A stretch of 64,000 nucleotides of DNA. Origin: Mycobacterium sp. DL592 (GTDB lineage: Bacteria > Actinomycetota > Actinomycetes > Mycobacteriales > Mycobacteriaceae). Below are positions 37,269 through 54,610 of the stretch, in pieces. The notes beneath the pieces were generated by a model, which made no database searches, had not been told where the DNA came from, and was given only the letters and a program-made list of their open reading frames with translations. Position numbers and translations under genes: made by a program. The DNA lies in assembly GCF_011694515.1 (NCBI RefSeq), contig NZ_CP050192.1:1251063-1315062 (forward strand), given 5' to 3'. How positions within the stretch are numbered: position 1 is the first letter of the stretch; each line of letters opens with the position of its first letter.

Positions 37269-38879
37269 ATGCGTGCGTCCTTGGCTAACTCGCGTCCGGC
37301 GGATGCCGCGTCCACTTCTTTGCTCGATCGGCACGATGTCGCCGAGGCACTCGCCGCTATCCGCAGGCCAGTGGCCGTGGTCGGGTCAGCACACGGGCCC
37401 CGGGCCGTCGTGCTCGACGACTCGGGTTTGCTCACACCGGAGATCATGGGCCAGGACGTGCTGGCTGTCCTGCCGCCGATCTATCCCGAATGGCTCGGCG
37501 AGCGCAGCTTCACGGCCACCCACGGAGTCCGCTTCCCGTATGTGATCGGCGAGATGGCGCGCGGCATCGCCACCCCGCGGATGACCATCGAAGGCGTGCG
37601 GGCCGGGGTGATGGCCTTCTACGGCAGTGCCGGGCTGGACCTGCCGACCATCGAAGCGGGCGTGCGTGAGATCCAGGATGCGCTCGGACCCGATTCGGGC
37701 GGCTGGGGTGCGAACCTCATCCACAACCTGCACAACGATGCCGTGGAGATGGCCACGGTCGATCTGTTCCATCGGCTCGGAGTTCGCTACGTTTCAGCCT
37801 CGGCGTTCATGAGGCTCACCCCGGCAATCGTGTACTACGCGGTGAAGGGTCTTCGTCGCGGACCGGACGGACAGATCGTGCGCGCCGGCCACATCTTCGG
37901 CAAAGTGTCGCGCGACGAGGTGGCCCGGCAATTCCTCTCTCCTGCACCCGAAGCCATGCTCAGTGCCCTGGTGGCCCAGGGCCGCATCACCGCCGAGGAG
38001 GCACAGCTCGCCGCCGGCATCCCGATCGCTGAGGACATCACCGCCGAGGCGGACTCCGGCGGGCACACCGACAATCGTGCGCTGACGGTCTTGCTGCCCG
38101 GACTGATCGCGCTGCGCGACGAGATCGCCGCGGCTCACGGATATTCGGTGCTGCCCCGGGTGGGCGCGGCCGGAGGGCTGGGAACCCCGGCGTCGGTGGC
38201 GGCCGCGTTCGCCGCAGGCGCGGCCTACGTCCTGACCGGGTCGGTGAATCAGTCCGCGGTGGAAAGCGGTCTGGCCGCCGACGCGCGCAGCCTGCTCGCC
38301 CAGGCCGAGGCCACCGACGTGACAATGGCCCCGGCCTCGGACATGTTCGAGATGGGTGTGACGGTGCAGGTGCTCAAGCGCGGCACCATGTTCGCCCAGC
38401 GCGGCCAGCGGCTGTCGGACTTCTACCGTCGCTACGGCTCCTTCGAGGAAGCCCCCGCCGACGAGGTGCGCAACCTCGAGACCACCGTGCTCGGCCGTAC
38501 CGTCGACGACATCTGGCAGGAGACCGAGGCCTTCTTCTCCCGCAGCGACCCGGCGCAGGCCGAACGTGGTCGCACCGACCCCAAACACCGGATGGCTCTG
38601 GTCTTCCGCTGGTATCTGTTCATGGGTTCGCAGTGGGCCCGCGACGGCATCACCGAACGGCGTGCCGACTACCAGATCTGGTGCGGCCCGGCGATGGGTG
38701 GCTTCAACGAATGGGTGCGGGGCAGTTTCCTGGAACCGGTGCAGGCGCGCACTGTGCGTCAGATCGCGCTGAACCTGCTCGAGGGTGCCGCCACCGTCAC
38801 GCGTGCCGGCCAGTTGCGCACCGCCGGCATCCAGATGCCCCCGTCCGCCTTCGATTACCGTCCCCGCCCACTCGGATAA
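37269..38879 (+). CDS. pfaD: PfaD-like trans-acting enoylreductase of a PUFA-synthase-type system
   Basis: A 536-aa FMN TIM-barrel enoylreductase of the PfaD/FabK-like class. Landmarks are HGVRFPYVIGEMARGIATPRM, WGANLIHNLHNDAVEM, RYVSASAFM, the LPRVGAAGGLGTPASVAAAFAAGA phosphate-binding region and ASDMFEMGVTVQVLKRGTMF. In PUFA synthases it reduces the enoyl intermediate in trans. It is the first gene of a three-gene set with two megasynthases on the same strand; the next gene starts 42 bp later. The C-terminal WYLFMGSQWARDGITERRADYQIWCGP block is also typical (shown abbreviated). Confidence 0.9.
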   Translation: MRASLANSRPADAASTSLLDRHDVAEALAAIRRPVAVVGSAHGPRAVVLDDSGLLTPEIMGQDVLAVLPPIYPEWLGERSFTATHGVRFPYVIGEMARGIATPRMTIEGVRAGVMAFYGSAGLDLPTIEAGVREIQDALGPDSGGWGANLIHNLHNDAVEMATVDLFHRLGVRYVSASAFMRLTPAIVYYAVKGLRRGPDGQIVRAGHIFGKVSRDEVARQFLSPAPEAMLSALVAQGRITAEEAQLAAGIPIAEDITAEADSGGHTDNRALTVLLPGLIALRDEIAAAHGYSVLPRVGAAGGLGTPASVAAAFAAGAAYVLTGSVNQSAVESGLAADARSLLAQAEATDVTMAPASDMFEMGVTVQVLKRGTMFAQRGQRLSDFYRRYGSFEEAPADEVRNLETTVLGRTVDDIWQETEAFFSRSDPAQAERGRTDPKHRMALVFRWYLFMGSQWARDGITERRADYQIWCGPAMGGFNEWVRGSFLEPVQARTVRQIALNLLEGAATVTRAGQLRTAGIQMPPSAFDYRPRPLG

Positions 38880-38921: not shown

Positions 38922-41900
38922 ATGACAGACCAGCAGCAGAACCCCGTCTCGATTCCCGTCGCCGTCGTAGGTATGACAGCCATCTATCCGGGAGAGCCGG
39001 GACTGGACGGTTTCTGGCGCACCATCACCGGTGGCCGCGACGCCATCGGGGACGTGCCGCCGTCCCACTGGCTGATCGACGACTACTACGACCCGGATCC
39101 CAAGGCCACCGACCGGACCTACTGCAAGCGCGGCGGGTTCATCGAGCCGGTGCAGTTCGATCCGGTGAAGTTCGGCTTGCCGCCCAACGCGCTGCCGTCC
39201 ACCGACTCCGCCCAGCTGCTGGCCCTCATCGCCGCGCGCAAGGTGCTCGACGAGGCCATGCGCTCCGGTGTGGAGGTCGACCTCGACCGCGTCGACATCG
39301 TTCTCGGCGTCGCCTCCACCACCGAACTCGTCGTCCAGATGGGCTCGCGGATGCAGCGCCCGATCTGGCGCAAGGCGCTGCTCGAGAACGGGCTGTCCGA
39401 AGCGGAGGCCGACGAGATCTGCGGCGACATCGCCGACTCCTACCCGTCCTGGCAGGAGAGCACCTTCCCCGGTCTGCTCGGCAACGTCGTCGCCGGCCGG
39501 GTCGCCAACCGGTTGGACCTCGGTGGCAGCAACTTCGTCGTCGACGCCGCCTGCGCCAGCTCGCTGTCCGCGCTGCAGGCCGCTCTGCACCGGCTGTATC
39601 TGCACGAGTCCGACCTGGTGCTGACCGGCGGAGTCGACGCGCTCAACGACGTGATGATGTACATGTGCTTCTCCAAGACGCCGGCGTTCTCGCCGACGGG
39701 TGACTGCCGGCCGTTCTCCGATGCCGCCGACGGCACCATCATCGGCGAGGGTGTGGGCATGCTGGCGCTCAAGCGTCTCAGCGACGCCGAGCGCGACGGC
39801 GACCATATCCACGCGGTGATCCGCGGTCTCGGCTCGTCCTCGGACGGCCGTGCCTCCAGCGTCTACGCCCCGCGCTCGGAAGGTCAGGCCAAGGCGCTGC
39901 GCCGCGCGTACGAGCGCGCCGGTTACGCCCCGGAGACCGTCGAGCTCCTCGAAGCCCACGGCACCGCCACCAAGGCCGGTGACGTCGCCGAGTTCGCTGG
40001 CCTCAAGCAGGTGTTCACCGACTCCTCGGCCCGGATCGCGCTGGGCTCGGTCAAGTCCCAGATCGGCCACACCAAAGCCGCCGCGGGTGCGGCTGGCCTC
40101 ATCAAAGCTATTCTGTCGCTGCAGCATTCGACGCTGCCCGGCACGCTGAAGGTGGACCGCCCGAACCCCGCGATGGGCTTGGAGGAAACCCCCTTCTACG
40201 TCAACGCGCAGACCCGCCCGTGGGTGCGACCCGGCGACCAGCCGCGCCGGGCGGCGGTCAGCTCGTTCGGCTTCGGCGGCTCCAACTTCCACGTGACGAT
40301 CGAGGAGTACACCGGCGAGCACCGGGCCAAGCGGCTGCGAGCCCTGCCCAGCGAACTGGTGGTGCTCAGCGCCGCCTCCGGGGCCGAGCTGGCCACGCGG
40401 GCCGCCGACATCGCGGCCGCCGCGCGGACCGGCGAGAGCCTGGCCCGCATCGCCTACGAATCTGCCCGCGACTTCGACGCCGCGCACAACGCCCGTGCCG
40501 GTCTGGTCGCCGCCGACGTGACGGCGCTGGCGGCGCTGGCCGACAAGCTGAACAAGGCGCTCGCCGACGGCACCGCCGCCACGCTCAAGGACGCCAACAT
40601 CTCGGTCGGATTCGGCCCCGCCCGCGAGGGCAAGACCGCCTTCCTGTTCCCGGGTCAGGGCAGCCAGTACGTCGGGATGGGGGCCGACCTCGCGCTGGCC
40701 TTCCCGGCCGCCGTCGCGGTGTGGGATTCCCTGGACGGCGACCTCGCCGATCTGCACCGCGTGGTGTTCCCCGAGCCGGCCTTCGATTCGGCCACCTCGG
40801 ATGCCCAGCGCGCCGAGCTGACCGCCATGCAGAACGCCCAGCCAGCGATCGCCACCACCAGCCTGGCCCAGCTCGCCCTGCTCGACGCGCTCGGGGTACG
40901 CGCCGAGGCGGCGGCCGGGCACAGCTTCGGCGAGGTCACCGCACTGGCGGCCGCGGGCGTCCTGCCCACGCAGCGCCTCGTCGACACCGCGCGCACCCGC
41001 GGGGTGCTGATGGCCGAGGCGGGCCAGGGTCAGGACGGCGCGATGCTGGCGGTGACCGCCAGCGCCGCCGATGTCCGGGCCCTGCTGGACAGCCAGCCGG
41101 AGGCGGCCGCTTCGCTGGTGATCGCTAACGACAACGCGCCCGGCCAGGTGGTGCTGGCCGGCCCGGCCGCCGATATCGCCTGGGCGGAATCCGCCGCGAA
41201 GGCGGCGGGCTGGACGTCGGTGCGGCTGCCGGTGGCGTCGGCGTTCCACTCGCCGATCGTGGCCGCGGCCTCCCAGCCGTTGACGGCTTACCTCCAGACG
41301 ATGGAGTTCGGCCAGGCGCAGTTCCCCGTCTACGCCAATGCGACCGCGCAGACCTACGCCGGTGGGGTCGCCGAGCAGCTCGGCGACCAGGTACGCCAGC
41401 CGGTGCGCTTCCGCGAAATGATCGAAGCGATGGCGCGCGACGGTGTCACCCGCTTCATCGAGGTCGGGCCGAGCCGGGTGCTGACCAAGCTGGTCGATCA
41501 GATCCTCGATGGCACACCGCATCTCGCGGTCGCACTCGATGACCCCAAGGCGGGTGGCCTGCGTGGCTGGCATCGCGGTCTGGCGGCGCTGGCCGCCGAC
41601 GGCGTGCGGCTGAACCTGGCCGCCCTCTACGACGACTACGACGAGCCGGCCAAGCATGTGCCGGCGCCCAAGCATGCGGTTCTGGTAGGAGGAGCCAACG
41701 TTGGAAAGCCTTATCCGCCTCTGGACGGCAAGGTCACGATCAAGCCGAAGCGCACTCGCGTGAGCGCGCCCCAGCCGAGCGTGCCGCAGCCGGTGGCCGC
41801 CACACCCGCGCCCGCCCCGGCCGCTGCCCACAACGGTGTACCGGCACCGACTCCTGCGGCAGCGGCGGTCCAGACGATGGCCGCCCCGCCTTCGGTGCCG

Positions 41901-44900
41901 CCGCGCAACGGTGCGCCCGAACCCGCACCGGCGGTGCAGACGGCACCGGCGCCCGCACCGGTTCTGCCGCGCACCGCGACGCCGACCCCAGCCGCCGCCC
42001 AGGCCCCGTTGTCCAGCGACGCCTGGAGCATCATCGACCGCATCCAGCAGGAGACCGCCCAGCAGCACGAGCGGTATCTCGGCGCGGTGGCCAACACCCA
42101 CAAGGCATTCCTGGAGATGTCGGCGCAGATGATGGCCGAGATCGTCGGCGAGCGCTCCGGCGGCCAGCAGGCACTGACGCCCGCACCCGTGGTCGTCCAC
42201 GCATCTGAGCAGGTGGTGCACACGGTGCACACCATCGCCGAGCCACCCGCCGCGGTCGCCGCGCCGGCGCCGGTGGTTGCGCCCGCTCCGGTGGCCGCGC
42301 CCGCTGCAGCCGCGCCCGCACCCGCACTCGCCCCCGCGGCACCGGCGCCGGCACCTGCGGCGCCAGCCCCGGCGGCACCGTCGGTGGACGCCGGTCAGGT
42401 CGTGCTGGCGATCGTCTCGGAGAAGACCGGTTATCCGGCCGACATGCTCGGGCTCGAGATGGAGATGGAGTCCGAGCTCGGGATCGATTCGATCAAGCAG
42501 GTCGAGATCCTGGCGGCGTTGCAGGCGAAGTTCCCTGGCGCTCCGGAGATTCCGGCTTCGGAGTTGTCGAACCTGCGGACCCTGCAGGATGTGGTGGATT
42601 CGGTCGCCGACTTCGCCTCGGCGGCTCCCGCTGCCGCTGCGCCCGCCGCGGTTGCCGCCCCGGCCGCCCCCGCGGTGGATGCCGGTGAAGTGGTGCTGGG
42701 CATCGTCTCGGAGAAGACGGGCTATCCGGCGGACATGCTGGGCCTGGACATGGAGATGGAGTCCGAGCTCGGGATCGATTCGATCAAGCAGGTCGAGATC
42801 CTGGCCGCACTGCAGGCGAAGTTCCCTGGCGCTCCCGAGATTCCGGCCTCGGAGTTGTCAAACCTGCGCACCTTGCAGGACGTCGTCGACTCGATCGCCG
42901 GCTTCGCCTCCGGTGGTGCAAGCGCCCCCACGGCGCCGGCCGCACCGGTCGCAGCCCCCGCCGCGGCCGCCCCGGTCTCCACCCAGGACGCCGGTGAGGT
43001 TGTGCTCGCGATCGTCTCGGAGAAGACGGGCTATCCCGCGGACATGCTGGGCCTGGACATGGAGATGGAGTCCGAGCTCGGCATCGATTCGATCAAGCAG
43101 GTCGAGATCCTGGCCGCACTGCAGGCCAAGTTCCCCGGCACACCTGAGATCCCGGCCTCCGAGCTGGCGAACCTGCGCACCTTGCAGGACGTCGTCGACT
43201 CGGTCTCCGGCGCGACGTCCGGTGGTGGCTCCGAACCCGATGCGCCCGTGCACCATTCGGCCCCGGCAACGGTGCCCGCGGGTGGCCTGGACTGCACTGA
43301 GGCGGCCATGCGGGAAGTCCCGCCGACCGGGTTCGCCATGGCGGGCCTGCGCGACGGCGAGGTCTTCATCACCCGGGAGAACGCGGCCTTCGCCGAGGAT
43401 CTCGAACGCGTGATGATCAGCCACGGCATCAAGGCCCGCTCTGTGGACGTCGTGCCGCACGAAGCGGCCGCGGTCATCAGCCTGGCGGCCCTCGGGCCCG
43501 TCGGCTCGCCGCAAGACTGCGTCGAGACGCACCTGCGGGCATTCCACGCCGCGCGCAGTGTCGCCAAGAGCTCCTCGCGCTCAAGGCTTTTCGTGACCAT
43601 CCAGTCCACCGGGGCGCGCTTCGCCGAAGCGGACACCCCGGTCGGTGTCGCCAGCATCGCCAAGACCGCGGCCTGGGAGTGGCCCAACGCCTCGGTGCGC
43701 GCCATCGACATCGAAACCCTGGACCCCGAACGCATCGTCGCCGAACTGCTCGCAGGCGGCAGCGGTGTGGAGGTCGCGCTGCGCAACGACGGCACCCGGC
43801 TGGTCGTCGTCGACGACGTCGACGCCGAGCCCACCGGCGAGACCATCAGCGTCCCCGCCGACGGCGTCGTGGTGGTCACCGGCGGTGCACGCGGTGTGAC
43901 CGCACAGTCCGCCCTGGCGTTGGCGGCACGGCACGGGCTGCGCCTGGCACTGCTGGGCCGCACCGCACTGCGGGAGGTCGCCGCCGACGAGCCGACGGGT
44001 ACCACCGCCACGGAGATCGCGACGGCGCTGGCCGCTGCGGCACGCTCCCGCGGCGAGGCGCTGAGCTTGCCGCAGGCCCGGGCCCAGGCCGAACGTCTAC
44101 TCGCCGAACGCGAAGTCCGCGCCACCCTGAGTGCCGCTGAGCGCCAAGGCACCCCGGCCAGGTACTTCGCCGCTGACATCAACGACACGGAGTCGCTGCG
44201 GACCGTCCTCGACGAGGTGCGCAGCACCGTCGGGCCGATCGTCGGCATCGTCCACGGTGCGGGCGTGCTGGCCGATCGGCGCCTGGAGGACCTCGACGAC
44301 GAGCAGTTCGTGCGGGTGTTCAACACCAAGGTGCTCGGGGCCGAGGCGCTGCTGGCGTCGACCGCGTCGGATGATTTGCGATTCATCTCGCTGTTCTCCT
44401 CCATCGCCGCCCGCGCCGGTAACCCCGGCCAGTGCGCCTACGCCGCGGCCAATGCGGTGTTGGAGTCGATCGCGGCACGCGAGGCGGCCCGTCGCGGTGA
44501 CGCGTGCGTGGTGCGTGCCTTCGGCTGGGGCCCGTGGGACGGCGGCATGGTCGACGCCACCCTCAAGAGCCGGTTCCTGGAATCCGGGGTCGGCGTGATC
44601 CCGATCGACGAGGGTGCGCACTTCTTCGCCGAGCACGCCCTGCGGCGCTCGCCGGCGACGGCGATCGTGGTGGCCGCCCCAGCAGAGGGACGTCTGCGTG
44701 CGGCCCGGCTGGACTGGGACGTGTCCACCGACAACCTGCCGGTGCTCGCCGACCATCAGGTCCGCGGCCGGGTCGTGGTTCCGGTGGTGATCGTGCTCGA
44801 CGCGATGTTGCGTGCGGTGCGTGGACTGGTGCCGGATGCCTCCCCGGTGATCCGCGACTTCCAGGTGCTCTCCGGTGTCACGTTCGCCGAATGCGAGCAG

Positions 44901-45482
44901 CAGGCACTGACCCTGGACTTCGAGCCGACCGGGTCGGCCTACACCGTCAGTGTGCAGGACCCGGAGGGTCGCAAGCGCTACCGGGCTGTTCTGGAGACCG
45001 AATCGCAGCCTGCACCAAGCATTTCGGTGCCGCACGCCTCCGGTGAGCAGTGGCCGTTCGGTGTCGGCGAGATCTACGGCGGCCCGCTGTTCCACGGCCC
45101 CCGTTTCGCCGCGATCGAGCAACTCGACGCGGTCGGGCCCGCCGGGGCCGGTGCGACGCTGAAGGGCCTCGACGAGCTCGGCTGGCCCGAAGGGGACTGG
45201 GCGATCGATCCCGTCAGTGTCGACGGCGGCCTGCAACTGGGCATCCTGTGGGCGAGTGCGCACGGGCGGCCGCTGGTCCTGCCGGTGCGCATCGGGCGTG
45301 CGGTCTTCCATCAGCCGTTCGGTGAGGGTGGCAGCCTGCGCTGCCGCATCGCCGCCAAGCCGGTCAACGACAAGCGGGTCGACTTCGACATCGCGCTGGA
45401 GACCGCCGACGGCACGCTGGTCGCCGAACTCGAGGCTGTCGAGTTCTACGTCGCAGGCACTGGGGCGGACACGACGGCGTGA
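38922..45482 (+). CDS. pfaA: PfaA-like multidomain synthase: KS-AT-ACP-ACP-ACP-KR-DH
   Basis: A 2186-aa iterative type I synthase. The ketosynthase spans about 12-460, with Cys211 in DAACASS, EAHGTATKAGD and the IGHTKAAAGAAG histidines. The acyltransferase has Ser668 in GHSFGE. A Pro/Ala linker is followed by three near-identical acyl carrier proteins with phosphopantetheine serines at 1190, 1287 and 1390 (LGIDSIKQVEIL). The ketoreductase covers about 1650-1920 (VVTGGARGVTAQSAL, IVHGAGVLADRR). The C-terminus is a hot-dog dehydratase with His1945 in DHQVRGRVVVP (HxxxGxxxxP). Tandem ACPs are the hallmark of PUFA synthases. Its stop overlaps the next gene (GTGA). A PPTase must activate the ACPs; none is in the window. 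Confidence 0.92.
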   Translation: MTDQQQNPVSIPVAVVGMTAIYPGEPGLDGFWRTITGGRDAIGDVPPSHWLIDDYYDPDPKATDRTYCKRGGFIEPVQFDPVKFGLPPNALPSTDSAQLLALIAARKVLDEAMRSGVEVDLDRVDIVLGVASTTELVVQMGSRMQRPIWRKALLENGLSEAEADEICGDIADSYPSWQESTFPGLLGNVVAGRVANRLDLGGSNFVVDAACASSLSALQAALHRLYLHESDLVLTGGVDALNDVMMYMCFSKTPAFSPTGDCRPFSDAADGTIIGEGVGMLALKRLSDAERDGDHIHAVIRGLGSSSDGRASSVYAPRSEGQAKALRRAYERAGYAPETVELLEAHGTATKAGDVAEFAGLKQVFTDSSARIALGSVKSQIGHTKAAAGAAGLIKAILSLQHSTLPGTLKVDRPNPAMGLEETPFYVNAQTRPWVRPGDQPRRAAVSSFGFGGSNFHVTIEEYTGEHRAKRLRALPSELVVLSAASGAELATRAADIAAAARTGESLARIAYESARDFDAAHNARAGLVAADVTALAALADKLNKALADGTAATLKDANISVGFGPAREGKTAFLFPGQGSQYVGMGADLALAFPAAVAVWDSLDGDLADLHRVVFPEPAFDSATSDAQRAELTAMQNAQPAIATTSLAQLALLDALGVRAEAAAGHSFGEVTALAAAGVLPTQRLVDTARTRGVLMAEAGQGQDGAMLAVTASAADVRALLDSQPEAAASLVIANDNAPGQVVLAGPAADIAWAESAAKAAGWTSVRLPVASAFHSPIVAAASQPLTAYLQTMEFGQAQFPVYANATAQTYAGGVAEQLGDQVRQPVRFREMIEAMARDGVTRFIEVGPSRVLTKLVDQILDGTPHLAVALDDPKAGGLRGWHRGLAALAADGVRLNLAALYDDYDEPAKHVPAPKHAVLVGGANVGKPYPPLDGKVTIKPKRTRVSAPQPSVPQPVAATPAPAPAAAHNGVPAPTPAAAAVQTMAAPPSVPPRNGAPEPAPAVQTAPAPAPVLPRTATPTPAAAQAPLSSDAWSIIDRIQQETAQQHERYLGAVANTHKAFLEMSAQMMAEIVGERSGGQQALTPAPVVVHASEQVVHTVHTIAEPPAAVAAPAPVVAPAPVAAPAAAAPAPALAPAAPAPAPAAPAPAAPSVDAGQVVLAIVSEKTGYPADMLGLEMEMESELGIDSIKQVEILAALQAKFPGAPEIPASELSNLRTLQDVVDSVADFASAAPAAAAPAAVAAPAAPAVDAGEVVLGIVSEKTGYPADMLGLDMEMESELGIDSIKQVEILAALQAKFPGAPEIPASELSNLRTLQDVVDSIAGFASGGASAPTAPAAPVAAPAAAAPVSTQDAGEVVLAIVSEKTGYPADMLGLDMEMESELGIDSIKQVEILAALQAKFPGTPEIPASELANLRTLQDVVDSVSGATSGGGSEPDAPVHHSAPATVPAGGLDCTEAAMREVPPTGFAMAGLRDGEVFITRENAAFAEDLERVMISHGIKARSVDVVPHEAAAVISLAALGPVGSPQDCVETHLRAFHAARSVAKSSSRSRLFVTIQSTGARFAEADTPVGVASIAKTAAWEWPNASVRAIDIETLDPERIVAELLAGGSGVEVALRNDGTRLVVVDDVDAEPTGETISVPADGVVVVTGGARGVTAQSALALAARHGLRLALLGRTALREVAADEPTGTTATEIATALAAAARSRGEALSLPQARAQAERLLAEREVRATLSAAERQGTPARYFAADINDTESLRTVLDEVRSTVGPIVGIVHGAGVLADRRLEDLDDEQFVRVFNTKVLGAEALLASTASDDLRFISLFSSIAARAGNPGQCAYAAANAVLESIAAREAARRGDACVVRAFGWGPWDGGMVDATLKSRFLESGVGVIPIDEGAHFFAEHALRRSPATAIVVAAPAEGRLRAARLDWDVSTDNLPVLADHQVRGRVVVPVVIVLDAMLRAVRGLVPDASPVIRDFQVLSGVTFAECEQQALTLDFEPTGSAYTVSVQDPEGRKRYRAVLETESQPAPSISVPHASGEQWPFGVGEIYGGPLFHGPRFAAIEQLDAVGPAGAGATLKGLDELGWPEGDWAIDPVSVDGGLQLGILWASAHGRPLVLPVRIGRAVFHQPFGEGGSLRCRIAAKPVNDKRVDFDIALETADGTLVAELEAVEFYVAGTGADTTA
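42380..43230 (+). repeat. Three tandem ACP-coding repeats inside the PfaA-like gene
   Basis: Three copies of an approximately 290-310-bp unit encode ACPs separated by Ala/Pro linkers. The core DNA, including GAGTCCGAGCTCGG at about 42469, 42760 and 43070, is almost unchanged between copies. Copies 2 and 3 are most alike. Such repeats can gain or lose units by recombination, and can also collapse in short-read assembly. Confidence 0.85.
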
Positions 45483-48400
45483 GTGGTTTCGAACCTGTCG
45501 CCATCGTCGGGCGCAGCTGCATCCTGCCCGGTGCCGCCACACCGGAGGCGCTGTACGACGCGACCCTCAACGGCCGCTGCCTGCTGACGCCCACCCGGCC
45601 CGAACACTGGCGGGGCGTGGACCCGGCGGCCCTGCTGGCCAGCGAACAGCCCGGCCTCCGGGTGTCCTCGGCCACCGGTGGCTACATCGACGTATCGCCG
45701 GACCTCAGTGCGATCGCGGCGCGGATCACCGATTTCGACCGCCTGGACCCGATCTCGCACTGGCTGGCCTACTGCGCTCAGCAGGCTCTCGGTGCTCCGT
45801 CGGCAGCACCGCGGACCGGGCTCATCGTCGGTAACCTGTCCTACCCGTCGGCGGGCAACACCGAGTTCGTCGAGGGCGTCTGGAACGGGAACGGCCACAC
45901 CGATCCGCGCAACCGCTTCTCCTCGGGGCTGCCGGTGCACCTGGTGGCCGGTGCGATGGGGCTGACCGGACCGGCCTTCGCGCTGGACGCGGCGTGCGCG
46001 TCATCGCTGTATGCGATCAAGCTCGCCTGCGACGCGCTGCACGACGGCGACGCCGACGTGATGCTCGCGGGCGGCGTCAACGGCGCCGACGATCTGTTCC
46101 TGCATCTGGGTTTCACTGCGCTGCAGGCACTTAGCCCCTCGGGCCGGTCGCGGCCGTTCCACACCGATGCCGACGGTCTGGTTCCGGCGGCAGGCGCGGC
46201 GCTGGTCGCCCTTAAACGCCTCGAGGACGCCGAGCAGGCCGGGGACCGGATACTCGGGGTGATCCTGGGCGTCGGCCTGTCCAACGACGGGCGCCAGAGC
46301 GGCTTCCTGGCCCCTGCGGTCGGGGGGCAGACCCGGGCGATGACGGCCGCCCTGGAGCAGGCGGGCCTGACCCCGTCGGATATCGACTACCTGGACTGCC
46401 ACGCGACCGGCACACCGCTGGGTGATGCCACCGAGTTGCAGAGCATCTTCGCCGCCTACGGCGAGGTGCCGCTGCGGCTCGGGGCGCTCAAGGGCAACCT
46501 CGGTCACACCATCACCGTCTCCGGTGCGGCCAGCCTGATCAACGTGCTCTCGGCGATGCAGGCCGGCACCATCGCGCCTGCCCTGTGCGAGAAACCCACT
46601 GCGGCGCTGGCCGATACACCGTTCACATTGGCGACCACCCCGATGCCGTGGGACGGCGCGGTCAAGCGGGCCGCGGTCAGCAACTTCGGCTTCGGCGGCA
46701 ACAACGCCCACCTGATCGTCGAGAGCTATGTGCCCTCGCGCCGCGCGGCGGTGCGCCCGTCGGCGCCCTCGGGTGACATCGTGATCTGCGGGCTGGGTGT
46801 GGTGACCGGCGACGCGCGTGATGTCGAGACATTCCGGCGCCGGGCGCTGGGTCCCGAGGCGCAGCCGACCCCGCTGGACACGGTGGAGCTCGACCTTGTG
46901 CGCCTTGGCTTTCCGCCCAGTGAACTCAAGTCCAGCCTCAGCCAGCAGACCACGATGCTGGCCGCCGCCGGGCACGCGCTCGAGCAGGTGGGTACCGACC
47001 CGGAGCGCACCGGTGTCATCGTCGGAATGGGCTGCGACGCCACGATCGCGCGTCAGCGGCTTCGCGTTCTGCACGCCGACGACCAGGACTGGCTGACCGC
47101 CAACAGCGAGGCGGCGCCGCGTCTGACCGCCGACGGCGTGGTCGGCACCATGCCCAACATCCCGGCGAATCGCATTCACGCACAACGGGATTTCCGCGGC
47201 TGGGGGTTCACCGTCTCCAGCGAGGAGCTCTCGGCCATCACCGCTCTGCGGATCGGTGTGCGCGCACTGCGGCGCGGTGAACTCGACGCCGTGGTGGCAG
47301 GGGCGGTGGACATGTGCTGCGAGCCGGCGCACGAGCGGGCCGCCGACGCGGTCGGCGCCGGGGGATGGGAGCCGCACGGTGATGCCGCGGTGGCGTTCGT
47401 CCTCAAGCGGCGCGCCGACGCCGAGGCCGCCGGTGACGACATCATTGCCGTCATCGACACCGACGGGGCGCTGGGCGCTCCGGAGCCCAATATCGGCGCC
47501 GAACGTTTCGGGCGCACCCATGCGGCCAGCGCGGCGATCGAAATCGCTTCGCGTGCAGAGGCATTGCGCGCCCGGGTCCGGGTAGACCAGAACGGGGCGC
47601 AACCCGCTCCCGGTGGCACCCAGACCTCGATCTGGCTGGAGTCGCTGGGCGGGCGTGCCGACGGTGTCACGTTGTCGGCGGTTGGCCATCGGCCCCGCCC
47701 GCTGGCGCTCGGTGCGGTACCGCTGTGCGAGCGCTACGCGGGTGCGAGCCGTGACGAGGTCATCGGCCGGATGAAGCGCCGCGAGCCGGGCGGAAGCGGC
47801 CCGGTGCGGTGCTCGGTGGTGGCCGATAACGACACTTCGCTGGATACGCTGCGCACGGCGGCGGTCGAACGCCTGGAGCGTGGTGAGTCGCCGGTGATTC
47901 CCGGTGTCGCTTTCGCCGAGGGACCGACGACCGGGGAACTGGCGTTCATGTTCACCGGGGCGGCGGCGGCCTACCCGGGGGCCGGGCGAGATCTGTTCCT
48001 GGCGTGGCCCGAACTCGGTGATGCGCTGGCGGCCCGGCTGTCCGGGGTCGGCGATCTGGCGCGCCCGCTGTACGGCGCCGGGATCACCACCCTCGATCCC
48101 CGCACCCAGCTGACCGGCTGCGCGCTGGTCTGCCAGGCACATGCGGAGTTCTCTCGCACCGTGCTCGGGCTGGCGCCGACCGCGGCCATCGGACTTTCGT
48201 CGGGGGAGACAAATTCGCTTCTGGCATTTGGGGTCTGGCGTGATCTCGAGGAGATGCTCGGCGAGATCGAAGCATCCGGCATGTACGGCGAGCAGCTGAC
48301 CGGAAGCTGCCGGGTGGCGGCCACCGACTGGGGTCTGGGTGAGCAGGCGGCACCGTGGGAGTGCTGGCGCATCAACGCACCCCGGGATCGGGTCGAGGCC

Positions 48401-50179
48401 GCGCTGGCCCGCGAGCCGCGCGCGTACATGACGATCGTCCAGGCACCCGACGACTGCGTGATCGGCGGCGATCCCGCGGCATGCAAGCGGGTGATCGACG
48501 CTGTCGAGGGAGCCGGTGCGATACCGCTGGGCCTGGACATGGTGATCCACTGCAGCGCCATGGATCCGTTCGCCGACACCTGGCGGGCCATCCACACCCG
48601 GCAGGCGCACGTCGCGCCGGGAGTGCGGTTTTACACCAACGCCGGCAACCGGGCGTATGTGCCGACCAGTGAGGCCGCCGCGGCGGCGATCACCCAGCAG
48701 GCCGTCGAACCCATCGACTTCCCCGCGACGATCCTGCAGGCCTGGGAAGACGGCGTGCGGGTGTTCGTCGAGCACGGCCCGCGCGCCATTCTCACCGGGG
48801 CGATCCCGAAGATCCTCGGCGACCGCCCGCATGTGGCGGTGGCGCTGGATCCGCAGGAACGCCGAGGACTACGGGCACTCGCCGAGTCGGTGTCCAAACT
48901 GTGGGTGCACGGCCTGCCGGTGCGCGTCGATGCCTTCGACGCACGACTGGAGCAACTGCGCAGTCAATCAGCCCCGGCGACAGCGGATATCGCCCGCAAG
49001 GTGACGCTGCCCGCCCACTGGCCCGACGTGGTGGCGGTCTCCCACGAACCAGCTCAACCTGCATCCGAGAACGGGAGCACCCCAATGCCGGAACCAGACC
49101 ATGGAACTCTGCAGACGATGCAGGCGGCGCCGGCGTATCCGACGCCGCTGGTGATCCCGCAGCGCGAGGTCGTCGTCACCGCGACGGAGGTCGTCCCCGC
49201 GCGCGGTCAGACGGCGCCGGGCACGGTCGGCGACCGGACGGCCGTGGCGCTGAGCCTGGTCGAGTCCGTGGGCCAGGCCCATGCGGCGTTCGTCGAGCAG
49301 CAAGCCGAAGCGCACGAGTCGTTCCTGAGGATGCGCGGCGAGATGCTGGCGATGGCGGCGGGCCGGCGCGGTCCGGTCACCGTGGATGCCCCGGCGTCGC
49401 CGGTGGCGTTGACGTCGTCGCCGCAACCCGTTGCCGCACCGGTGAATCCGCCGCGCACGGCCGTCGCGGCGGCCCCGGCACCCGCGGCCGTACCTCCGCC
49501 GGCCCAGGCCGCACCTGCGGCTCCAGTGACGCCGCCACCCCCGCCGCCGGGCCCTGTCTCCTACACCTGCTGTGGTGGAGACGTAGCCGTTGCCGCCGTT
49601 GCCGAACAACACACCGCCGGGCTTGCCGTCCGGGCTGTCCGCAGTTCCGTTGGCGCCGTTGCCGATCAGCAGCGTCCCGAACACCACCACGGAGAAGCCG
49701 TTGGTAGTCGCGCCCGCCATCGTCGTGTTCGAGCCGAATGCCAGCCCGTTGCCGAAGTTGTAGGCGATGCCGTCAGCACCGTTGCCTCCGACGGTCGTGC
49801 CGCCGCTGCCGCCCGCCCCGCCTGCGCCACCGATCGCGTTGCCCGGCCCGCCGAAGGGGTAGTAGCCCATGATGGCCATACCGCCCTGGCCGCCGTCGCC
49901 GCCGGTGACGGTGCCTGCGCCGCCGGCCCCGCCCGCGCCGCCGATCACGTTGCCGTAGCCGATGCTCAGTGCGATACCGCCGGTGCCGCCCTTGCCGCCG
50001 ATGACGCCTGCGCCGCCGGTTCCGCCTGCCCCGCCGACCTGGTCGTCGTAACCGCCGGTGCCGCCATTGCCGCCGGTGCTGCTCGCGCTGGCGCCGCCGT
50101 CGCCGCCGACGCCCGCGCTACCGAGGTAGCCGCCGTTCCCGCCGCTCCCGCCGGTGCCGCCGACGCCGGTGGTCGCTGA
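45479..50179 (+). CDS. PfaC-like synthase KS-CLF-AT, truncated and fused to antisense PGRS sequence
   Basis: GTG 45479 overlaps the previous stop by 4 bp. Residues 1-425 are a ketosynthase with Cys173 (DAACASS) and CHATGTPLGD. Residues about 440-740 are a chain-length-factor-like KS that lacks the active Cys (VSSEELSAI). About 820-1160 is an acyltransferase with Ser907 in GLSSGE. A linker follows with ALSLVESVGQAHAAFVEQQ, similar to the PfaA linker. From about residue 1358 (base 49,555) the frame is the reverse complement of a PGRS repeat gene and encodes an artificial Ala-rich tail. PUFA synthases of this kind continue with two dehydratases, missing here, so the complex is probably inactive unless these lie elsewhere. 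Confidence 0.85.
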   Translation: MSGFEPVAIVGRSCILPGAATPEALYDATLNGRCLLTPTRPEHWRGVDPAALLASEQPGLRVSSATGGYIDVSPDLSAIAARITDFDRLDPISHWLAYCAQQALGAPSAAPRTGLIVGNLSYPSAGNTEFVEGVWNGNGHTDPRNRFSSGLPVHLVAGAMGLTGPAFALDAACASSLYAIKLACDALHDGDADVMLAGGVNGADDLFLHLGFTALQALSPSGRSRPFHTDADGLVPAAGAALVALKRLEDAEQAGDRILGVILGVGLSNDGRQSGFLAPAVGGQTRAMTAALEQAGLTPSDIDYLDCHATGTPLGDATELQSIFAAYGEVPLRLGALKGNLGHTITVSGAASLINVLSAMQAGTIAPALCEKPTAALADTPFTLATTPMPWDGAVKRAAVSNFGFGGNNAHLIVESYVPSRRAAVRPSAPSGDIVICGLGVVTGDARDVETFRRRALGPEAQPTPLDTVELDLVRLGFPPSELKSSLSQQTTMLAAAGHALEQVGTDPERTGVIVGMGCDATIARQRLRVLHADDQDWLTANSEAAPRLTADGVVGTMPNIPANRIHAQRDFRGWGFTVSSEELSAITALRIGVRALRRGELDAVVAGAVDMCCEPAHERAADAVGAGGWEPHGDAAVAFVLKRRADAEAAGDDIIAVIDTDGALGAPEPNIGAERFGRTHAASAAIEIASRAEALRARVRVDQNGAQPAPGGTQTSIWLESLGGRADGVTLSAVGHRPRPLALGAVPLCERYAGASRDEVIGRMKRREPGGSGPVRCSVVADNDTSLDTLRTAAVERLERGESPVIPGVAFAEGPTTGELAFMFTGAAAAYPGAGRDLFLAWPELGDALAARLSGVGDLARPLYGAGITTLDPRTQLTGCALVCQAHAEFSRTVLGLAPTAAIGLSSGETNSLLAFGVWRDLEEMLGEIEASGMYGEQLTGSCRVAATDWGLGEQAAPWECWRINAPRDRVEAALAREPRAYMTIVQAPDDCVIGGDPAACKRVIDAVEGAGAIPLGLDMVIHCSAMDPFADTWRAIHTRQAHVAPGVRFYTNAGNRAYVPTSEAAAAAITQQAVEPIDFPATILQAWEDGVRVFVEHGPRAILTGAIPKILGDRPHVAVALDPQERRGLRALAESVSKLWVHGLPVRVDAFDARLEQLRSQSAPATADIARKVTLPAHWPDVVAVSHEPAQPASENGSTPMPEPDHGTLQTMQAAPAYPTPLVIPQREVVVTATEVVPARGQTAPGTVGDRTAVALSLVESVGQAHAAFVEQQAEAHESFLRMRGEMLAMAAGRRGPVTVDAPASPVALTSSPQPVAAPVNPPRTAVAAAPAPAAVPPPAQAAPAAPVTPPPPPPGPVSYTCCGGDVAVAAVAEQHTAGLAVRAVRSSVGAVADQQRPEHHHGEAVGSRARHRRVRAECQPVAEVVGDAVSTVASDGRAAAAARPACATDRVARPAEGVVAHDGHTALAAVAAGDGACAAGPARAADHVAVADAQCDTAGAALAADDACAAGSACPADLVVVTAGAAIAAGAARAGAAVAADARATEVAAVPAAPAGAADAGGR

Positions 50180-51136
50180 CCCGCCGGTTCCACCTGCCCC
50201 GCCGTTGCCGGTGAACAGTCCGCCCGCGCCGCCTGAACCGCCGCTGCCGCCGGTCTCGAGGTCGACGGCGGTGGACCCGCCGTTGCCGCCTTTGCCGCCG
50301 TTGCCGAACCAGACCGCCGAGCCGCCGTTGCCGCCGGCCTTGCCGGCCTGGCCGGTTCCGCCATTGCCGCCGTTGCCGATGATCCCGGAGGTGCCGCCGT
50401 TGCCGCTGCCCCAGCCGCTGCCGCCGTTGCCGTAGAGGAAGCCGGCATTGCCGCCATTACAGCTGCCGGATGCCGCGGTGCAGTCACCGGCCACCGTGCC
50501 GTAGCTGTAGCCGTTGCCGATCAGCAGGCCCGCATTCGGATGATCGGCGGTGCCGTCGCTGACCAACAACGCCATGAAGTCGCTGAGCGCGCCGGTCCAG
50601 GGGAACAGCGAGGGCAATGTGGGCAGCACGGGGATCGCCGAGGCCGCAACGGTCGTCTTGGCGACGGCAGCGGCTGCGGGCGCGGCTGCAGCCGGCGTGG
50701 CTGTGGCGCTCAGCGTGGCGGCAGCGGCCGGCGCGGCATCTGCGGCAGCGGGGGAGACGGTGGTGGTGGTGGTGCTGGCAGCCGCCACCGGATCAATCGT
50801 GGTGGTGGCAGTATTGGCTGTCGACGACCGGCCGGTGGACGTGGCCGCGGCCGGAGAACTGCTGGAAGACTTGGGTTTCGAGGTTGTGGTGCCCGTGTGC
50901 GGACGGGCTGAGCCGGTGGACTTGGAGGTCGACGCTGACGCTGCGCTGTCGGTTGAGCCGGCGGCGTCGTTCGACGGGGCCGCGTTAGCGACCCCGGTGG
51001 CCCCGGCTAGGGACGCGCAGACACCGACGGTGAGCGCGCCGGCACCAAGCCAGGTGGACAGCTCGCCGTGCGGGCGGGAAGCGCGGTGGCGCGCACGAGA
51101 ACGCTCCTCACGTGCCGCACGATGTTTTGCTGTCAC
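48968..51136 (-). CDS. PGRS-like glycine-rich exported protein, 3' end lost and fused to antisense pfaC
   Basis: The GTG at 51136 opens a frame with a basic N-terminus and a signal peptide (WLGAGALTVGVCASLAGA), then a Ser/Thr/Ala-rich region to about residue 165. About 330 residues of GGxGGx and GNGG repeats follow (from about 195), like the repeat domain of PE_PGRS proteins but without a PE domain. At about residue 525 (base 49,560) the repeats stop at GNGYVSTTAG. The last 197 residues are antisense to the PfaC-like gene and Arg-rich, so they are not native. The protein would be surface or cell-wall located. Function unknown. Confidence 0.7.
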   Translation of the reverse strand: MTAKHRAAREERSRARHRASRPHGELSTWLGAGALTVGVCASLAGATGVANAAPSNDAAGSTDSAASASTSKSTGSARPHTGTTTSKPKSSSSSPAAATSTGRSSTANTATTTIDPVAAASTTTTTVSPAAADAAPAAAATLSATATPAAAAPAAAAVAKTTVAASAIPVLPTLPSLFPWTGALSDFMALLVSDGTADHPNAGLLIGNGYSYGTVAGDCTAASGSCNGGNAGFLYGNGGSGWGSGNGGTSGIIGNGGNGGTGQAGKAGGNGGSAVWFGNGGKGGNGGSTAVDLETGGSGGSGGAGGLFTGNGGAGGTGGSATTGVGGTGGSGGNGGYLGSAGVGGDGGASASSTGGNGGTGGYDDQVGGAGGTGGAGVIGGKGGTGGIALSIGYGNVIGGAGGAGGAGTVTGGDGGQGGMAIMGYYPFGGPGNAIGGAGGAGGSGGTTVGGNGADGIAYNFGNGLAFGSNTTMAGATTNGFSVVVFGTLLIGNGANGTADSPDGKPGGVLFGNGGNGYVSTTAGVGDRARRRGWRRHWSRRCGLGRRRYGRGCRGRRDGRARRIHRCGNGLRRRRQRHRRRRGIHGDRTAPARRHRQHLAAHPQERLVRFGLLLDERRMGLAHGLDQAQRHGRPVADRARRRLTARGDDLRRGDDDLALRDHQRRRIRRRRLHRLQSSMVWFRHWGAPVLGCRLSWFVGDRHHVGPVGGQRHLAGDIRCRRG

Positions 51137-51350
51137 TGTTCGTTTCCCGGTCCCCTGTTACCCCGGTCACAGATCGTAGCAAAGCAAGCTGGCGGCTCCA
51201 GCAAATGCCTGGTCAGGCCGTCGGATGCCGAGTGTCGTTGTGCCGATACATACCTTCGGTCGGTTATCCCGGGCCGGGCAAGCTCGGTGTTCGTCCCTGG
51301 AGTCGCGCCCTGTGCCCATCCCGGTAATTCCCGTCCGCTGTCTGCACCGG

Positions 51351-52487
51351 CTACTTCCGGTGCCGCCCGCCGCCGCCGGTGGAGCCCGAGGAGGAGTCGG
51401 ACGCCTTCGCTTGCCGGGCCGTCCCACCGCTGGTCTTCGCCGCGTGCTTGGGACCCGTGGCCTCGGAGGAATCGGCCGACGTGGTCGTCGCTGCGGCGCT
51501 CGTTGCGTTATTGCCTCCGGTCGCGGCCGACGGCCGGCCGACGGCGAATCCGTTGATGTTGAAGCCAGGGCCACCCGCGGCGACCGTGGCACCGTTCTGC
51601 CCGACCGATCCCGCCAGCGCTGCAGCGCCCGGGCCGGCGCTGACGGTGTTGCCATTGCCCTGGGCATTGAAGGCGCCGAGCAATATCGACGGCGTGGCCG
51701 AATTTCCGGCAGCCACCGTGGTGTTATTGCCGTTGATGTTGACGGCGCCGGTGAGGATTCCCGCCGAGGAGACGTTGTTGTTACCGGTATCGCCCGAGAT
51801 ATTGAGTGCGGCGGAGGCGATTCCACCGGCTGCGGTGGTCTGCTGGCCGTTGTTGTTGGGCAGGAAGCCGATCGCGATGTTCAGGCCGCCGACCGTCGAC
51901 GTGGTGCCCGGCCCCAGTTGCAGGGAGAAGTTCAACAACCCGGCCGCGCCGGTGGTCTGGCCGCCGGATCCCAGCGGATTGACACCGGCGGAGTAATTGA
52001 GGAAACCGAGGGTCGACGACGTGCCCTGGCCCAGCTGGTAGGAGAAGTTGAGGACGCCGATGGCGCCGGCCTCCGCGTTTCCGTTGCCGGTGTTCTGGCT
52101 GATGACAAGGTTCAGGGCGCCCCAGTTGGAGGCAGTGCCCGCCCCGATTTGCAGTGCGGTGGAGAAGAAGGAGGTGATGGCCCCGGCCGAGGCGCTGTCA
52201 CCGAGGGCCGCCGCCCAGGTGAACGCACTCAAGACCGTGGTGGCGCTGGCGCCGTCACCGATCGCGATCGCCCCGTTCAGAAGGCCGCCCGCGCTCGCCG
52301 TCGCGCCGTTGCCGATCCCGATGGCGAAGGTCGTCAGGTTGCTCGTGCAGCCGTTGCCGTTGCCGATCCCGAATGCCGAGAAGCAGTTGGCGTTGGCGGC
52401 TGGGGCTGCACTGAGTGTCCCGGCGCCGAGCGCACCGGAGACCAGTGCCCCGAGCAACACGCCGCCTTTGACTCGAGCCTGATGCAT
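51351..52487 (-). CDS. Exported Gly/Asn/Ala-rich repeat protein, unknown function
   Basis: A 378-aa protein. MHQARVKGGVLLGALVSGAL is a signal peptide, cleaved near SAAPAANA. Two cysteines follow (NCFSAFGIGNGNGCTS), probably a disulfide loop. Then come repeated beta-like units of 20-25 residues with GNG, LNFSYQLGQGTSST and LNFSLQLGPGTTST, which could form a beta-solenoid. The tail is disordered and ends SSGSTGGGGRHRK. ATG 52487. It resembles mycobacterial secreted proteins of unknown function; same strand as the PGRS fragment, 214 bp upstream of it. Confidence 0.7.
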   Translation of the reverse strand: MHQARVKGGVLLGALVSGALGAGTLSAAPAANANCFSAFGIGNGNGCTSNLTTFAIGIGNGATASAGGLLNGAIAIGDGASATTVLSAFTWAAALGDSASAGAITSFFSTALQIGAGTASNWGALNLVISQNTGNGNAEAGAIGVLNFSYQLGQGTSSTLGFLNYSAGVNPLGSGGQTTGAAGLLNFSLQLGPGTTSTVGGLNIAIGFLPNNNGQQTTAAGGIASAALNISGDTGNNNVSSAGILTGAVNINGNNTTVAAGNSATPSILLGAFNAQGNGNTVSAGPGAAALAGSVGQNGATVAAGGPGFNINGFAVGRPSAATGGNNATSAAATTTSADSSEATGPKHAAKTSGGTARQAKASDSSSGSTGGGGRHRK

Positions 52488-52744
52488 CGGCGTACCTCAA
52501 TGTTCGTCGGTGTCTTTGCCGGTAAGGACCGTACCTCTCCCCGGCGTGAGGCAGAAAGAGTTTCGGCCAACTCTTTGCCACATTCATAGCTGGCGCACAC
52601 ATGATGCCGGTGAGCTGCGGCAGCTCAGCGTGGTGGCCGGTTGCGGCATCCCGGCGACACGCAAGGCCGTGTCCTCGATGCTCTGGTGCACGATCGATAG
52701 CCGGGTATGGGTGCCGGGCGATCTGAAGCCGTTCGAACGCTGAG

Positions 52745-52817
52745 TGCCCCCGGCAGGATTCGAACCTGCGGCCTTCTGCTCCGGAGGCAGACGCTCTATC
52801 CCCTGAGCTACGGGGGC
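52745..52817 (-). tRNA. tRNA-Arg (anticodon CCG)
   Basis: The reverse strand folds as a 73-nt cloverleaf: acceptor GCCCCCG/CGGGGGC with discriminator A, D-arm GCTCAGGGGATAGAGC, anticodon stem TCTGC/GCAGA with loop CTCCGGA (anticodon CCG, reads CGG), and T-arm with GGTTCGAATCC. The 3' CCA is not encoded. It lies 140 bp from argS, divergent from it. Confidence 0.95.
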
Positions 52818-52957: not shown

Positions 52958-54610
52958 GTGACCCCCGCCGACCTCGCCGAGCTGCTGAAGAACACCGCCG
53001 CCGCGGTGCTGGCCGCGCATGGCCTCGACACCGCCGCGCTTCCCGCGGTCGTGACCGTCGAGCGCCCGCGCAACCCCGAGCATGGCGATTACGCGACGAA
53101 TCTGGCGCTGCAGGTCGCCAAGAAGGTCGGCGCAAACCCCCGGGAACTGGCCGGATGGCTGGCCGCTGCGCTCACCGAAGCCGACGGGATCGCCTCGGCC
53201 GAGGTCGCCGGGCCGGGCTTTGTGAACCTGCGCATCGAGGCCTCGGCCCAGGGCCTCATCGTCCGCAACGTCCTCGACGCCGGTGCCGGATACGGCCATT
53301 CCGGGCTGCTGCAGGGCCAGAGGATCAACCTCGAGTTCGTTTCGGCCAACCCCACCGGCCCCATCCACATCGGTGGCACCCGGTGGGCGGCCGTCGGCGA
53401 TGCGCTCGGTCGCCTACTGTCCACCCAGGGCGGCGACGTGGTCCGGGAGTACTACTTCAACGATCACGGCGCGCAGATCGACCGGTTCACCAAGTCGCTG
53501 ATCGCCGCCGCCAAAGGCGAACCGGCCCCTGCCGACGGCTATGCCGGCGCCTACATCAACGACATCGCAGACCAGATCCTGGCCAAGGCCCCCGACGCAC
53601 TGAGCTTGACCGGCGGGGAGCAGCAGGAGACGTTCCGGTCCATCGGCGTGGACCTGATGTTCGACCACATCAAGAAGTCCCTGCACGAGTTCGGCACCGA
53701 CTTCGACGTCTACACCCACGAAGACTCCATGCACACCAGCGGACGCGTGGACCAGGCGATCGCCAAGCTCCGGGAGAACGGCGCCATCTACGAAAAGGAT
53801 GGCGCAACCTGGCTTCGCACAACGGAATTCGGTGACGACAAGGACCGCGTCGTCATCAAGAGCGACGGCCAGCCCGCCTATATCGCCGGCGACCTGGCCT
53901 ACTACCTGGACAAGCGCCAGCGCGGCTTCGATCTGTGCATCTACATGCTGGGTGCCGACCACCACGGCTACATCGCGCGGTTGAAGGCGGCTGCCGCCGC
54001 GCTCGGTGACGACCCGGACACCGTCGAGGTGCTGATCGGCCAGATGGTGAACCTCGTCCGCGACGGGCAACCCGTGCGGATGAGCAAGCGGGCCGGCACG
54101 GTGATCACCCTCGACGACCTCGTCGAGGCCATCGGAGTCGACGCCGCGCGATACGCACTGATCCGCTCCTCGGTGGACAGCCCGATCGACATCGACCTGC
54201 AGCTGTGGTCCTCGGCGTCCAGCGAAAACCCGGTCTACTACGTGCAATACGCCCACGCCCGGCTCTCGGCACTGGCCCGCAACGCCGCCGAACTCGGCCT
54301 GGCGCCCGACACCGCACACCTGGATCTGCTCACCCATGACAAAGAGGGCACCCTGATCCGCAACCTGGGCGAGTTCACCCGGGTGCTCGAGTCCGCGGCC
54401 TCGCTGCGCGAACCGCACCGGGTGTGCCGTTACCTCGAGGACCTGGCGGGGGACTACCACCGGTTCTACGACTCCTGCCGGGTGCTTCCCCAGGGCGACG
54501 AAGAACCCACCGACTTGCATCGAGCCCGGCTGGCGTTGTGCGACGCCACCCGCCAGGTGATCGGCAACGGGCTGGGCATCCTGGGCGTGTCCGCACCGGA
54601 GCGGATGTGA
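52958..54610 (+). CDS. argS: Arginyl-tRNA synthetase
   Basis: A 550-aa class I synthetase with the HIGH-type motif HIGG (137-140, in [13 protein letters not shown]) and the KMSKS-type MSKR (375-378), an N-terminal Add1 domain and C-terminal DALR anticodon-binding domain. GTG 52958 gives the length of Rv1292. Its stop overlaps the lysA start (GTGA), so the two are coupled. Confidence 0.97.

What the first reader, a model, noticed from the sequence alone, without database searches (positions are those of the whole stretch)
49500..49620. Tail-to-tail fusion of a truncated PfaC-like PKS gene and a PGRS-type gene
Up to about 49,555 the plus strand reads as a KS-CLF-AT synthase with its interdomain linker. 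From about 49,560 the minus strand reads as PGRS glycine repeats. Neither gene has a native stop: each frame runs on through the antisense of the other (plus frame to 50179, minus frame to 48968). The simplest origin is a deletion joining two convergent genes, removing both 3' ends and whatever lay between, including the expected PfaC dehydratases. GTCTCC at 49556-49561 and GGAGAC at 49577-49582 form a short inverted repeat at the join. An assembly artefact between GC-rich repeats is the alternative.
Basis: partly seen in the sequence, partly recalled or inferred. Interest (0 to 1): 0.75.

Follow-up and report, generated by a model that had tools for sequence, protein, structure and literature searches.

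The report
Deletion scar joining two convergent genes
In this mycobacterium the assembled genome lacks some 80,000 bases that relatives carry, most of a predicted lipopeptide gene cluster, and the break joins the stump of a fatty-acid synthase gene tail-to-tail with the stump of a glycine-repeat protein gene; it is most likely a real and recent deletion of a familiar kind.

Summary
PfaC is cut in its Pro-rich linker at about 49,561, and a minus-strand PGRS gene is cut at the same place; both frames run on antisense as stated. Of 29 related loci, 25 reach a stop codon and all 25 continue into FabA-like dehydratases (24 nearly complete, one frame-broken); four end with their contig. In the relative M26 the same flanks (pfaD-pfaA-pfaC on the left; PGRS genes, tRNA side and argS on the right) lie in the same order and strand, but about 82-84 kb apart. 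That interval holds sugar-nucleotide genes, two MmpL, MmpS, glycosyltransferases, acyltransferases, NRPS, PKS and an acyl-AMP ligase: the mycobacterial hybrid PKS-NRPS-PUFA cluster described in 2026, resembling a GPL locus in layout. No ortholog-level copy was found in the window's one-contig 5.10-Mb genome, though about 15 kb of the interval was not used as a query. The remaining pfa genes show no excess of unique substitutions, so the loss looks recent. The 6-bp inverted repeat is chance. Main caveat: no reads are available, and three relatives' draft contigs end in this very linker. Ordinary mechanism, useful natural null.

The parts
37269..38879 (+). pfaD, intact
   Evidence: NCBIfam TIGR02814 pfaD_fam, 595 bits, cut-off 449
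38922..45482 (+). pfaA, intact (KS, AT, three ACP, KR, DH-like)
   Evidence: TIGR02813 1379 bits, cut-off 1010; Pfam domains
45479..49561 (+). pfaC remnant (fused PfaB/PfaC type: KS, CLF-like, AT-like, start of Pro-rich linker); dehydratase part missing
   Evidence: AT-like part only by a sub-threshold PfaB match (54 bits, cut-off 144.3)
49553..49584 (.). junction
   Evidence: CH28 pfaC homology ends at 49561; PGRS model match ends at 49562
49562..50179 (+). run-on of the pfaC frame, antisense to PGRS
   Evidence: no PfaC homology (0 of 761 dehydratase residues)
49562..51136 (-). PGRS gene remnant; start of the protein looks like a signal peptide (by eye), no PE family found
48968..49561 (-). 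run-on of the PGRS frame, antisense to pfaC
51351..52487 (-). right flank: small secreted-looking protein gene, counterpart in M26 at 1092133-1093371
   Evidence: no Pfam or NCBIfam family
52744..52817 (-). right flank: tRNA-Arg(ccg)
52958..54610 (+). right flank: argS, 88% identical to M26
   Evidence: name by my reading of the protein

Best explanation
One deletion removed roughly 76-84 kb from an ancestral arrangement. Its left end lies in the Pro-rich linker of pfaC, its right end inside a PGRS gene near argS. Shown: both flanks are in the order and orientation of M26; searched parts of the interval have no ortholog-level copy in the assembly; both genes stop being homologous to their relatives at one point. 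Inferred: illegitimate, perhaps microhomology-aided joining of two GC-rich repeat tracts (proline codons and PGRS antisense), and a recent date. Inferred consequence: the Pfa synthase has lost its PfaC dehydratase/isomerase domains and its partner NRPS, PKS, ligase, sugar and MmpL genes, so the lipopeptide should no longer be made. The two run-on tails are antisense sequence, most likely without function.
For: Flank colinearity: window 2019-49407 matches M26 961008-1007449, and window 50965-57110 matches M26 1091763-1097999, same strand; further PGRS matches at 1089269-1089944 and 1091306-1091704. Relatives: 25 of 29 loci reach a stop, all 25 with dehydratase sequence, 24 with at least 754 of 761 residues (one, L017, is the query itself), L027 with 683; the other four end with their contig. 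M26 and the complete F4 chromosome share much of the interval, so it is ancestral. Own genome: no FabA-family match, while the same search rang in 9 of 14 control genomes; no match to the CH28 dehydratase part; longer matches (500 bases and up) to CH28 downstream DNA and to three 20-kb M26 pieces are only 65-75% identical, against 84-88% for most of the flanks. Genome in one contig, completeness 99.99; no N in the window or the 20 kb before it.
Against: No reads could be examined. Three of 29 relatives' contigs (L025, L028, L030) end in this linker at residues 1338-1353, so it is hard to assemble. The own-genome DNA searches scored only 40 of 188-764 first-look candidates each, and about 15 kb of the M26 interval (about 1015.5-1021.0 and 1081.0-1091.3 kb) was not used as a query. 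The right flank beside the PGRS gene is only 72-78% like M26, M26 has a one-base N gap there, and own PGRS found no tblastn match at 1e-10 in the F4 or CH28 counterpart stretches, so the right-hand end is less exact than the left.
Confidence: 0.87

Rival explanations
1. Assembly artefact: the interval exists in the organism but was dropped from the assembly, and two GC-rich ends were wrongly joined.
For: Three of 29 relatives' contigs break exactly in this linker; M26 has a gap base in its PGRS stretch; both sides are GC-rich repeats.
Against: It needs a false join and the loss of some 80 kb together, in a one-contig genome without N in this stretch. The two sides share no long repeat at the join.
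Confidence: 0.1
2. Rearrangement: the interval was moved elsewhere (inversion or translocation) and not lost.
For: The own genome has a PKS at 2608781-2614951 that is 72.7% identical over 6.2 kb to the PKS of the M26 interval.
Against: That identity is below the 84-88% of most flanks and fits a paralog; only scattered glycosyltransferase-like pieces (64-68%) accompany it. Dehydratases are absent.
Confidence: 0.02
3. Functional chimera: the fused frames are made as proteins and kept because they do something.
For: The pfa remnants are open and show no excess of unique changes. Functional fusions formed by deletions are reported in M. tuberculosis (PMC7671302, abstract and passages).
Against: The partners are on opposite strands, so each tail is antisense sequence. 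No protein like the fusion is among the 120 listed of 3852 hits. Such open runs are expected by composition. Recency alone explains the open frames.
Confidence: 0.01

Closest known systems
[quoted passage not shown] fortunisiensis TNTM28, Mycolicibacterium sp. CBMA 234; here L036 and L037)
   Same: The window keeps the pfa side (pfaD, pfaA, front of pfaC); the M26 interval has an NRPS, a PKS and an AMP-ligase, with a methyltransferase-family gene between NRPS and PKS
   Different: In the window the dehydratases, NRPS, PKS and ligase are gone
Deletion of the glycopeptidolipid (GPL) locus, e.g. 24.8 kb and 10 genes in M. massiliense Asan 50594 (PMC3878547)
   Same: Large deletion inside a cluster for a surface lipopeptide, with MmpL, glycosyltransferase and sugar genes
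   Different: Another, pfa-linked cluster with unknown product; larger; phenotype not known here
Deletion-born gene fusions in M. tuberculosis (PMC7671302)
   Same: Breakpoints inside two distant genes leave a fused frame
   Different: Here the genes converge, so each tail is antisense and not the partner's protein

Membership tests
Pfa-type PUFA synthase | PfaD and PfaA present | tested here: met
   TIGR02814 and TIGR02813 above cut-off
Pfa-type PUFA synthase | PfaC dehydratase/isomerase (FabA-like) domains | tested here: not met
   0 of 761 residues in the window protein; no FabA-family or CH28 dehydratase match in the own genome
Hybrid PKS-NRPS-PUFA cluster | PKS, NRPS and CoA-ligase genes linked to pfa genes | tested here: not met
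   Not beside the pfa genes in the window (searches show other genes); met in M26
Glycopeptidolipid locus | NRPS with MmpL/MmpS, glycosyltransferases and rml genes | tested here: inconclusive
   M26 interval has such families but no comparison with a known GPL locus was made; the window has lost them
PE_PGRS protein | PGRS repeats | tested here: met
   PF21526 above cut-off
PE_PGRS protein | N-terminal PE domain | tested here: not met
   Pfam scan reports PGRS only
Deletion-born protein fusion | Both genes on one strand with frame kept | tested here: not met
   Genes converge

The most novel reading that the evidence does not exclude
The Pro-rich pfaC linker and the flanking PGRS genes form a recurrent recombination pair that lets this group of mycobacteria delete the whole lipopeptide island in one step, a one-way switch of surface chemistry.
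Probability: 0.07. Interest if true: 0.6.

Novelty: new member of a known kind. Interest (0 to 1): 0.38.

Why it matters
It shows how a mycobacterium can lose most of a predicted surface-lipopeptide pathway in one step, at a locus for which the paper section I read names no product. The strain would be a natural null to compare with close relatives that keep the cluster. It also warns annotators that the two long frames across the join are not new proteins.

Tried and rejected
Inverted repeat as a signal: as common as chance. Promoter or terminator at the join: 0 found by consensus scan of 48900-51200. Translocation: see rivals. Old decay of the remnant: not supported. Changes found only in one of the three close strains, over 2647 gap-free columns of pfaD, pfaA and the front of pfaC in 10 genomes, number 7 in the window, 22 in CH28 and 26 in M26; it is a rough test, because aligned segments were cut by tblastn (M26 pfaA 1034 aa, BK086 pfaA 1216 aa) and dS reaches 1.08. 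Exact microhomology: not determinable without the parental right-hand sequence. Papers: five searches of the open-access library listed nothing that I recognised as this deletion; the organism's name is not known to me, so it could not be searched by name. I read section 7 of PMC13291983 in full and passages; of PMC3878547 the outline and abstract; of PMC7671302 abstract and passages, 12 of 26 places; of the others only the listing.

Full report
What is there. The window lies in a one-contig genome of 5,100,839 bases, completeness 99.99. Its relatives are mostly Mycobacterium and Mycolicibacterium. A pfaD-pfaA-pfaC set starts at 37269. The pfaC frame opens at 45479 and closes at 50179; the PGRS frame opens at 51136 on the minus strand and closes at 48968. 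Similarity to the CH28 pfaC gene is continuous at 84% up to 49561 and stops there. The PGRS model is matched up to the join, where it is cut at position 38 of 73. So both genes lose their homology at one point, within about 22 bases.

Chance. Long antisense frames are normal here (3936 nt in pfaA, 2865 nt in the pfaC remnant). The inverted repeat is ordinary: 57% of 400 random stretches have one, and 13 of 200 shuffles fold at least as well.

Relatives. One scan of genome contigs gave 29 loci, all examined (one search covered 28 and its output was cut). Twenty-five reach a stop codon, and all 25 contain dehydratase sequence: 24 have at least 754 of 761 residues (one of them, L017, is the query itself), and L027 (F4) has 683 and then a broken frame. 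L025, L028 and L030 end with their contig in the linker, and L044 at residue 766. L023 and L024 come from the same isolate, so the loci are not all independent. In the protein search five of the six nearest hits are 2139-2141 aa; the sixth, P0004, is 1686 aa but also runs past the linker. Not every listed hit is full length: P0015 (1353 aa, marked partial), P0070 (989), P0073 (1089, Gordonia amarae) and P0075 (1273) list no dehydratase family; I did not follow these up.

The missing interval. Window 2019-49407 matches M26 961008-1007449, and window 50965-57110 matches M26 1091763-1097999, same order and strand; the PGRS part matches two M26 PGRS stretches, at 1089269-1089944 and 1091306-1091704. 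Between the flanks lie about 82-84 kb. In the F4 chromosome the linker (about 1557.9 kb) and a PGRS frame (1633.5-1635.0 kb) are about 76 kb apart, and much of the interval aligns with M26; that this F4 frame is the counterpart I judge by eye, as tblastn of the own PGRS protein found nothing there at 1e-10. Ten proteins or parts of proteins of the M26 interval were scanned with Pfam, nine with a match: MmpL, MmpS-type membrane protein, EryCIII-like glycosyltransferase, acyltransferase-3 with SGNH, a 4175-aa NRPS, a metal-dependent hydrolase, a PEMT-type methyltransferase, an AMP-ligase and a KS-AT-DH PKS. The sugar-nucleotide genes after pfaC, the second MmpL, the smaller NRPS and the further acyltransferases I name from their sequence by eye. 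[quoted passage not shown]

Is it elsewhere in the genome? No FabA-family match and no match to the CH28 dehydratase part. CH28 downstream DNA (7.9 kb) and three 20-kb pieces of the M26 interval gave longer matches (500 bases and up) only at 65-75% identity, against 84-88% for most of the flanks. Shorter matches reach up to 95% over a few dozen bases. Each of these DNA searches scored 40 candidates of 188-764, and about 15 kb of the interval was not searched (M26 about 1015.5-1021.0 and 1081.0-1091.3 kb). A PKS at 2.61 Mb is 72.7% like the one of the interval and most likely a paralog.

Age. The remnants have fewer strain-specific amino-acid changes than the same genes in CH28 and M26 (7, 22 and 26 in 2647 columns). 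dN/dS of window against CH28 or M26 is 0.06-0.20; CH28 against M26 gives 0.09-0.16. The genes were under constraint until recently. This is a rough test.

Mechanism and consequence (inference). Both ends are GC-rich repeat tracts, so illegitimate or microhomology-aided joining is likely, but the parental right-hand end is unknown. Without PfaC dehydratases and without the NRPS, PKS, ligase, sugar and export genes, the pathway should be dead. By analogy with GPL-locus deletion in M. massiliense (PMC3878547, abstract), a change of surface and colony form is expected.

Doubt. Three of the 29 relatives' contigs break exactly in this linker, so the spot is hard to assemble; reads are needed. I hold a real deletion at 0.87 and an artefact at 0.10. 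The mended counts did not change these odds.

Noticed in passing
L025, L028, L030: contig ends at PfaC residues 1338-1353: Three draft genomes break in the same Pro-rich linker, so it is a weak spot for assemblies.
   Followed up: partly
L027 (M. litorale F4), pfaC after about residue 1800: The pfaC frame breaks within the dehydratases and stops at 1946 aa: a mutation or a sequencing error.
   Followed up: no
F4 chromosome 1636700-1655000 (L095, L096): Some 18 kb of genes between the PGRS neighbour and argS that do not align with M26 and look like an integrated element (by eye).
   Followed up: no
L100 (own genome 2608781-2614951): A second PKS, 72.7% identical to the PKS of the missing interval, with glycosyltransferase-like pieces nearby.
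   Followed up: partly
L068 6178-14951 (M26): Four similar acyltransferase-3 genes in a row; one was scanned (AT3 with SGNH), the others judged by eye.
   Followed up: no
L043 (Caulobacteraceae MAG): A PfaC 58% identical to the window's, with the full dehydratase part, outside the Actinomycetota; horizontal transfer or mis-binning.
   Followed up: no
P0073 (Gordonia amarae): A 1089-aa relative, 69% identical, on a 5.29-Mb contig with no dehydratase family listed: possibly a split or truncated PfaC.
   Followed up: no
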